From positions 1 to 64,000 of the forward strand of contig JACRBZ010000061.1 of the NCBI GenBank assembly GCA_016219185.1: a stretch of DNA of 64,000 bases. Reading direction: 5' to 3'. The DNA comes from Deltaproteobacteria bacterium. GTDB lineage: Bacteria; Desulfobacterota; Desulfobacteria; Desulfobacterales; Desulfatirhabdiaceae. The notes below the pieces were generated by a model. That model was not told the origin of the DNA and did no database searches. It saw only the letters and a program-made list of their open reading frames with translations. Positions 3,806 through 4,144 of this stretch are shown here, in pieces. Made by a program: the position numbers and the translations under genes. Position 1 is the stretch's first letter; each line of letters opens with the position of its first letter.

Positions 3806-4144
3806 ATGGATTTGACGTGTATCAAATGCGGATTTTCCTCCGAGTATAATGACTTTAAATATCTTTGCCAAGCAGGGTGACCGGCATGCGGGGAGGCTGA
3901 TCTCCGCGAGTGCCCCAGGTGCGGGAACAAATGTCTGTTTTCAAGATCCGAAGCTCTGGAAAGAGAACAGGAGGAAATGAAAGAGTTGTCCAAAGAACTG
4001 GGATTGATTGCGAACACGGATGGTCCAGATCGTCTTGCGGAGGCGAAAGAAATAATTCGAAAATTACGTGCAATGAATCTCAGGTGGAACATTCCGGCGC
4101 TGAACACGTTTATCAAAAAACGTCAAAGAGCTATTTTTTTATAA
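3806..4144 (+). CDS. Candidate selenoprotein: small zinc-ribbon-like protein with in-frame TGA (Sec?) in a UxxC motif; alternatively a nonsense-mutated gene
   Basis: ATG 3806 preceded by AAGGAG; reads MDLTCIKCGFSSEYNDFKYLCQAG-(TGA)-PACGEADLRECPRCGNKCLFSRSEALEREQEEMKELSKELGLIANTDGPDRLAEAKEIIRKLRAMNLRWNIPALNTFIKKRQRAIFL* with TAA at 4142-4144; N-terminus parallels the 2765-2980 protein. Confidence 0.6.
3881..3914 (+). promoter_or_regulatory. Candidate bacterial SECIS-like stem-loop downstream of TGA 3878-3880
   Basis: GGCA-T-GC-GG-GGAG-[GCTGAT]-CTCC-GC-GAG-TGCC; apical loop begins with G, 15 nt after the TGA. Confidence 0.4.

What the first reader, a model, noticed from the sequence alone, without database searches (positions are those of the whole stretch)
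3806..4144. Candidate undescribed selenoprotein in a fumarate-addition hydrocarbon-activation operon
Seen: an ORF not in the supplied track starts at ATG 3806 (AAGGAG 8 nt upstream) and runs to TAA 4142 with one internal stop, TGA at 3878-3880. The TGA is the first position of what would be a CxxC pair (CQAG-U-PAC), giving UxxC, the common selenoprotein redox motif. The downstream half is coherent (CPRCG zinc knuckle, then a charged helical segment), and the N-terminus parallels the neighbouring 71-aa protein (CxxCGF-x5-DF(R/K)YL...R(Q/E)CP(K/R)C). Inference: UGA decodes Sec. A Zn/Fe-S or redox role beside the glycyl radical enzyme would be new. A plain TGC-to-TGA nonsense mutation or sequencing error is the main alternative.
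Basis: partly seen in the sequence, partly recalled or inferred. Interest (0 to 1): 0.88.

Follow-up and report, generated by a model that had tools for sequence, protein, structure and literature searches.

The report
New selenoprotein beside alkane-activating radical enzyme
The gene's in-frame stop codon is almost certainly read as selenocysteine: the same position is TGA or cysteine in about 80 relatives, nearly all beside the enzyme that lets bacteria attack oil alkanes without oxygen. This makes it a selenoprotein family that I find in no current catalogue and that gene-finding software cuts in two.

Summary
Confirmed and strengthened. ORF 3806-4144 carries one in-frame TGA (3878-3880). 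I collected 54 distinct relatives of the read-through protein: that codon is TGA in 42, Cys in 11, Leu (TTA) in one. Of 32 predicted relatives of at least 100 aa in a 5.8-billion-protein database, all 27 with the intact motif have Cys there, and about 30 shorter entries are C-terminal stumps starting after the TGA. Codons after the TGA are under purifying selection (dN/dS 0.05-0.37). A hairpin right after the TGA is kept by compensatory changes in TGA forms and mostly lost in Cys forms. The genome has selA, selB, tRNA-Sec(UCA) and selD. The neighbours are alpha, delta and beta subunits of (1-methylalkyl)succinate synthase (matched to PDB 9o8u), then a MoxR ATPase and a VWA protein; the order is conserved. 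The protein is a Sec-containing paralogue of the rubredoxin-like MASS-delta plus a three-helix tail. It matches no Pfam or NCBIfam family, and no entry I could match in the 2026 list of 119 prokaryotic selenoprotein families. UxxC is not the conserved feature: 9 of 38 core Sec forms have UxxT. Function is inferred: a dispensable redox or maintenance factor. Three loci lack the gene while keeping the rest of the operon.

The parts
3806..4144 (+). Selenoprotein gene, 112 aa with Sec at residue 25: rubredoxin-like or zinc-ribbon N-terminal domain (about 1-46) and three-helix C-terminal tail (47-111)
   Evidence: TGA/Cys homologues; AlphaFold2 model mean pLDDT 88
3878..3880 (+). In-frame TGA read as selenocysteine (residue 25)
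   Evidence: column is TGA 42, Cys 11, Leu 1 in 54 distinct members; Cys in 27 of 27 database proteins with the intact motif
3888..3907 (+). SECIS-like hairpin GCGGGGA-GGCTGA-TCTCCGC, loop starting 14 nt after the TGA
   Evidence: -10.9 kcal/mol for the hairpin alone; pairing 6.39 of 7 in Sec forms against 4.33 expected from synonymous shuffles; lost in most Cys forms
3792..3797 (+). Ribosome-binding site AAGGAG
3818..3829 (+). First metal knuckle C5-x2-C8
   Evidence: invariant in 49 of 49 members checked
3911..3922 (+). Second metal knuckle C36-x2-C39
   Evidence: invariant in 49 of 49 members checked
162..2663 (+). Catalytic glycyl radical subunit, (1-methylalkyl)succinate synthase alpha (MasD/AssA-type)
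   Evidence: PDB 9o8u_A, 1404 bits; PFL-like and Gly_radical Pfam domains
2765..2980 (+). MASS delta (MasE), rubredoxin-like; paralogue of the selenoprotein's N-terminal domain
   Evidence: 9o8u_D E 3.6e-25; hhalign 96.7% to the Sec family
3346..3717 (+). MASS beta (MasB)
   Evidence: 9o8u_B E 1.6e-26
4276..5124 (+). MoxR-type AAA ATPase, the gene directly downstream of the selenoprotein in nearly all loci long enough to show it
   Evidence: AAA_5 E 2.5e-17; context table
5093..6850 (+). VWA-domain partner of the MoxR ATPase
   Evidence: VWA E 1.1e-5

Best explanation
The gene encodes a selenoprotein: UGA at codon 25 is decoded as selenocysteine by SelB, tRNA-Sec and a hairpin just downstream. 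The product is an accessory protein of the alkane-activating glycyl radical enzyme (1-methylalkyl)succinate synthase, derived from the same rubredoxin-like ancestor as its delta subunit. Four invariant cysteines probably hold one Fe or Zn; Sec sits in the turn of the hairpin between the two knuckles; a three-helix tail follows. Most likely mechanism (inferred, about 40% for this step): it docks on the enzyme or its activase, perhaps with MoxR-VWA remodelling, and uses the selenol as a reductant or repair group that keeps the radical or iron-sulfur machinery reduced and usable. Shown: TGA/Cys interchange, translation past the TGA, RNA hairpin, Sec machinery, operon, paralogy. Inferred: metal identity, binding partner, redox function. 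The confidence given is for the selenoprotein and operon part.
For: Column 25 is TGA 42, Cys 11, Leu 1, and Cys in 27 of 27 database proteins with the intact motif, alongside about 30 C-terminal stumps that start after the TGA. At least 4 Sec/Cys changes on the tree, at least 2-3 forced by well-supported branches. dN/dS after the TGA is 0.05-0.37 in 17 pairs, while synonymous change in the first 54 nt after the TGA is low in most pairs. Hairpin: 6.39 of 7 pairs in Sec forms against 4.33 +/- 0.19 under synonymous shuffling (0 of 1000 reach it); Cys forms 4.64 against 4.11 +/- 0.36. The outer G-C pair becomes C-G in 8 of the 9 members with Thr28, with Arg CGC becoming CGG (Fisher p 8e-5, not corrected for relatedness). 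selA, selB, tRNA-Sec with anticodon TCA, and three selD copies each with its own TGA in the genome. Operon conserved. Isolate with a complete genome: Desulfosarcina alkanivorans PL12 has the TGA (L058).
Against: No protein-level proof. The hairpin loop starts 14 nt after the UGA, just short of the 16-37 nt in the bSECIS consensus (PMC13188914). One MAG has Leu (TTA) and a few divergent database proteins lack the Sec/Cys loop. In one TGA-carrying MAG (G057) tRNA-Sec was found only below the cut-off. The gene is missing from three operons that are otherwise intact, so it is not essential everywhere. The window's genome has 5.7% estimated contamination. Foldseek against PDB gave nothing significant.
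Confidence: 0.9

Rival explanations
1. Metal or cofactor delivery: the protein is an assembly or metallochaperone factor for MASS-delta iron or the beta/gamma [4Fe-4S] clusters, working with the MoxR-VWA pair next to it; Sec helps bind or hand over the metal.
For: Almost always directly 5' of the MoxR gene; rubredoxin-like paralogue of MASS-delta; in Sec forms neither Cys21 nor Cys28 is strictly kept, so a two-thiol redox pair is not required.
Against: Strain HxN1 MASS was purified with its metals after co-expressing only masBCDE in E. coli (PMC12358834), so no such factor is strictly needed there.
Confidence: 0.25
2. Fifth subunit: a structural or regulatory subunit of the synthase that alternates with MASS-delta at the activase-binding face, Sec tuning its affinity by reversible oxidation.
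For: Homology to MASS-delta, which occupies the activase site (PMC12358834); same operon.
Against: The MASS-delta C-terminal tail that contacts the glycyl radical domain is replaced by a helical bundle; the gene is lost in three loci that keep the rest of the operon.
Confidence: 0.25
3. Nonsense mutation or sequencing error: a Cys gene broken by TGC-to-TGA.
For: Close relatives with Cys exist (L086, 84% identical; P0008, 88%).
Against: The same TGA is present in 42 distinct members from many genomes and assemblies, including a complete isolate genome; the sequence after it is under purifying selection.
Confidence: 0.02
4. UGA is a real, conserved stop giving a 24-aa product, or is read through as another amino acid.
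For: Gene callers do annotate C-terminal pieces starting after the TGA.
Against: Exchange is with Cys (once Leu), never Trp or Arg; the genomes tested encode SelB, most with tRNA-Sec; the hairpin is kept mainly in TGA forms.
Confidence: 0.03

Closest known systems
MASS-delta (MasE) of (1-methylalkyl)succinate synthase, PDB 9o8u chain D
   Same: Rubredoxin-like CxxC...CxxC domain in the same operon; hhalign 96.7%, E 3e-10; profile hit E 7e-4
   Different: MasE is 71 aa, has no Sec and no further Cys in the hairpin turn, and has a tail that contacts the glycyl radical domain; here a Sec loop and a three-helix tail replace it
Zinc ribbon-containing (seleno)protein DG, NCBIfam NF049953
   Same: Small zinc-ribbon selenoprotein of the same phylum
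   Different: 172-position model, cut-off 130 bits; the best of 248 genomes in this order scores 32 bits over 27 residues; the window protein does not match it
Dual CXXC motif small (seleno)protein, hypothetical proteins OS_HP3 and DW, NF041197
   Same: Small dual-CxxC selenoprotein
   Different: Motif RxU or GxU in the review table; no member of A1 matches NF041197 at E up to 1
BSS-beta and BSS-gamma, and MASS-beta and MASS-gamma
   Same: Small Cys-rich accessory proteins of fumarate-adding glycyl radical enzymes
   Different: HiPIP-like folds binding [4Fe-4S] (PMC12358834); no sequence match to this family

Membership tests
Bacterial selenoprotein | In-frame UGA conserved across homologues with Cys as the replacement | tested here: met
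   42 TGA, 11 Cys, 1 Leu; 27 of 27 database proteins with the intact motif have Cys
Bacterial selenoprotein | Complete Sec machinery in the genome | tested here: met
   selA, selB, tRNA-Sec(UCA), selD
Bacterial selenoprotein | Downstream SECIS hairpin within the bSECIS model (upper stem 4-16 bp, loop 3-9 nt, G in the first two loop positions, spacing 16-37 nt, MFE at most -7.5) | tested here: inconclusive
   Stem 7 bp, loop 6 nt, G first, -10.9 kcal/mol, but spacing 14 nt; covariation supports the hairpin
Bacterial selenoprotein | Se or Sec shown in the protein | not testable with these tools
   needs 75Se labelling or mass spectrometry
MASS-delta (MasE) | CxxC...CxxC rubredoxin-like domain with four metal-ligating Cys | tested here: met
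   C5, C8, C36, C39 in 49 of 49, aligned with MasE by hhalign
MASS-delta (MasE) | About 71 aa with the C-terminal tail that binds the glycyl radical domain | tested here: not met
   Helical C-terminal domain instead; a true MasE is present separately
NF049953 ribbon_DG selenoprotein | Score at or above the curated cut-off of 130 bits | tested here: not met
NF041197 dual CXXC motif small selenoprotein | Match to the model | tested here: not met
   no match at E up to 1 among the members of A1

The most novel reading that the evidence does not exclude
A selenol-dependent accessory protein is part of anaerobic alkane activation in most Desulfobacterota that use fumarate addition, making this the first link between selenium and an X-succinate synthase, with Sec acting on the glycyl radical enzyme, its activase or the rubredoxin-like subunit.
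Probability: 0.5. Interest if true: 0.88.

Novelty: new variant of a known kind. Interest (0 to 1): 0.8.

Why it matters
It adds a family that I could not match to any entry of the current catalogue of prokaryotic selenoproteins and ties selenium to the main route of anaerobic oil degradation. Gene callers truncate it, so expression constructs, proteomics and annotations of alkylsuccinate synthase operons leave it out. It also bears on an open point in the 2025 MASS structure paper, why an alkane enzyme carries a rubredoxin-like domain: many of these operons carry a second, Sec-containing one. It predicts that growth on alkanes by these bacteria may depend on selenium supply, which is directly testable.

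Tried and rejected
Membership in selenoprotein DG (NF049953) or DW/OS_HP3 (NF041197): rejected by score. UxxC as the essential motif: rejected, UxxT in 9 of 38 core Sec forms and no partner Cys strictly kept. Antisense gene: rejected. Fold search of the AlphaFold2 model against PDB: nothing significant, a small protein with an uncertain loop. A second hairpin around the CPRCG codons was looked at; it pairs no better in Sec than in Cys forms, so not claimed. A sign test of hairpin against Sec state over independent pairs had too few pairs to decide. Folding z-scores with synonymous shuffling gave only mean -1.5 for Sec forms against -0.3 for Cys forms; the explicit pair count is the stronger test.

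Full report
Observation. On sequence alone this is weak, because the window has more than twenty other frames that open by 80 or more codons when one TGA is read through. The case rests on comparison.

Relatives. The read-through protein was searched in 100 related genomes, 396 of the same order, 398 of the phylum and the GTDB contig collection. Collecting every hit and reading the codon gives 54 distinct proteins: TGA in 42, Cys in 11, Leu (TTA) in 1. TGA forms include a complete isolate genome, Desulfosarcina alkanivorans PL12 (L058), and mostly Desulfobacterota MAGs, plus a MAG labelled Firmicutes; a Cys form comes from a MAG labelled Dehalococcoidia (labels not checked). Cys forms include both copies in Desulfatibacillum alkenivorans DSM 16219. 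A profile search of 5.8 billion predicted proteins returned 59 entries. All 27 entries of at least 100 aa with the intact motif have Cys at the position (26 in the count, and P0025, read by eye; the four entries are included); about 30 shorter ones are stumps that start after the TGA. Gene callers therefore cut the Sec forms. A few divergent entries lack the loop (P0029, P0030, P0036, P0041). On a tree built with the Sec column masked, Sec and Cys interchange at least four times.

Translation past the TGA. In 17 pairs of relatives dN/dS after the TGA is 0.05-0.37; in most pairs synonymous change is low in the 54 nt right after the TGA, as expected for an RNA signal.

RNA signal. Seven pairs flank a 6-nt loop whose first base lies 14 nt after the UGA (3888-3907 in the window, -10.9 kcal/mol). 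Sec forms keep 6.39 of 7 pairs, against 4.33 +/- 0.19 when codons are redrawn synonymously (0 of 1000); Cys forms keep 4.64 against 4.11 +/- 0.36. Most Cys forms encode the same Gly-Glu-Ser-Asp-Leu-Arg stretch with codons that break the stem. Where Cys28 becomes Thr (TGC to ACC) the partner Arg codon becomes CGG in 8 of 9, restoring the outer pair. Two members show double changes at inner pairs. The distant branch has its own 7-bp hairpin with a compensated outer pair. These counts are not corrected for relatedness. The spacing is 2 nt short of the published bSECIS consensus.

Sec machinery. The window's genome has tRNA-Sec at 77 bits with anticodon TCA, selB, selA and three selD genes that themselves carry an in-frame TGA. 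All nine genomes in the first test have selB, and eight have tRNA-Sec over the cut-off, counting the window's own; G057 has only a sub-threshold hit. G335, which by size and coordinates is the PL12 genome, has tRNA-Sec.

Setting. The window genes match the 2025 cryo-EM structure 9o8u of strain HxN1 MASS: 162-2663 MasD (alpha), 2765-2980 MasE (delta), 3346-3717 MasB (beta). MasC (gamma) and an activase were not seen here; the contig begins at the window's first base, and other loci have the activase upstream. In nearly every locus with enough flank, activase, MasD, MasB and MasE lie upstream and MoxR then VWA downstream of the Sec gene. By E value 26 of 396 genomes of the order carry this MasD type and 22 of them carry the Sec gene. 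Of the other four, three (G225, G228, G290) have MasE and MoxR adjacent with the gene cleanly missing; G290 also gave no selB hit (MAG 87% complete) and has a C-terminal remnant elsewhere. G121 is cut by contig ends.

Protein. The N-terminal domain is homologous to MasE (hhalign 96.7%). C5, C8, C36, C39 are invariant in 49 of 49 and correspond to the four iron ligands of MASS-delta (Cys3, 6, 32, 35; PMC12358834). Sec25 lies in the turn of the hairpin between the two knuckles, the least confident part of the AlphaFold2 model. Cys21 and Cys28 are kept in all 11 Cys forms but only in 34 and 29 of 38 core Sec forms: Sec seems to relax the need for partner thiols. No interaction or metal was tested.

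Novelty. No Pfam or NCBIfam model claims it. The 2026 review lists 119 prokaryotic selenoprotein families or subfamilies; none is linked to a glycyl radical enzyme, and the two similar small ones (DG, DW/OS_HP3) fail the score test. Paper searches for selenoprotein with alkylsuccinate synthase, and for D. alkanivorans with selenium, found nothing in the open-access library; selenocysteine with benzylsuccinate synthase gave two papers whose titles and abstracts concern other subjects. Subscription papers are not covered.

Verdict. Selenocysteine decoding is about as certain as sequence can make it. Association with the alkane-activating enzyme is strong. What the selenol does is open; a reductant or repair role near the glycyl radical or activase is my best guess.

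Noticed in passing
L126, L127, L128 (G523, G696, G732), about position 1501 in each: A stand-alone 66-aa dual-CxxC protein with in-frame TGA at the matching hairpin position (GTGG-U-HTVGSVEVRKCPRCG), not beside a glycyl radical enzyme within the 3 kb held and matching no NCBIfam model: possibly another undescribed small selenoprotein.
   Followed up: partly
L016/L026 (G060), L017/L027 (G046), L106, L108: A distant branch with motif SSU-SGPVDVRECPRCG beside another activase and VWA protein, with its own compensated hairpin; L026 has a glycyl radical enzyme (38% to MasD) about 8.5 kb downstream.
   Followed up: partly
L165 (G225), L166 (G228), L167 (G290): Alkylsuccinate synthase operons that have lost the selenoprotein gene cleanly between MasE and MoxR: natural knock-outs.
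   Followed up: partly
L056, L057, L060, L079 upstream of the activase: A further MasE-like small protein (for example MGLKCRHCSFEGTRADFRLLQRVDSAGPDTYRLCPKC), so some operons hold three rubredoxin-like paralogues.
   Followed up: no
window 16460-19012: A second MoxR/VWA pair (55% and 31% identical to the first) about 12.7 kb downstream of the selenoprotein gene.
   Followed up: no
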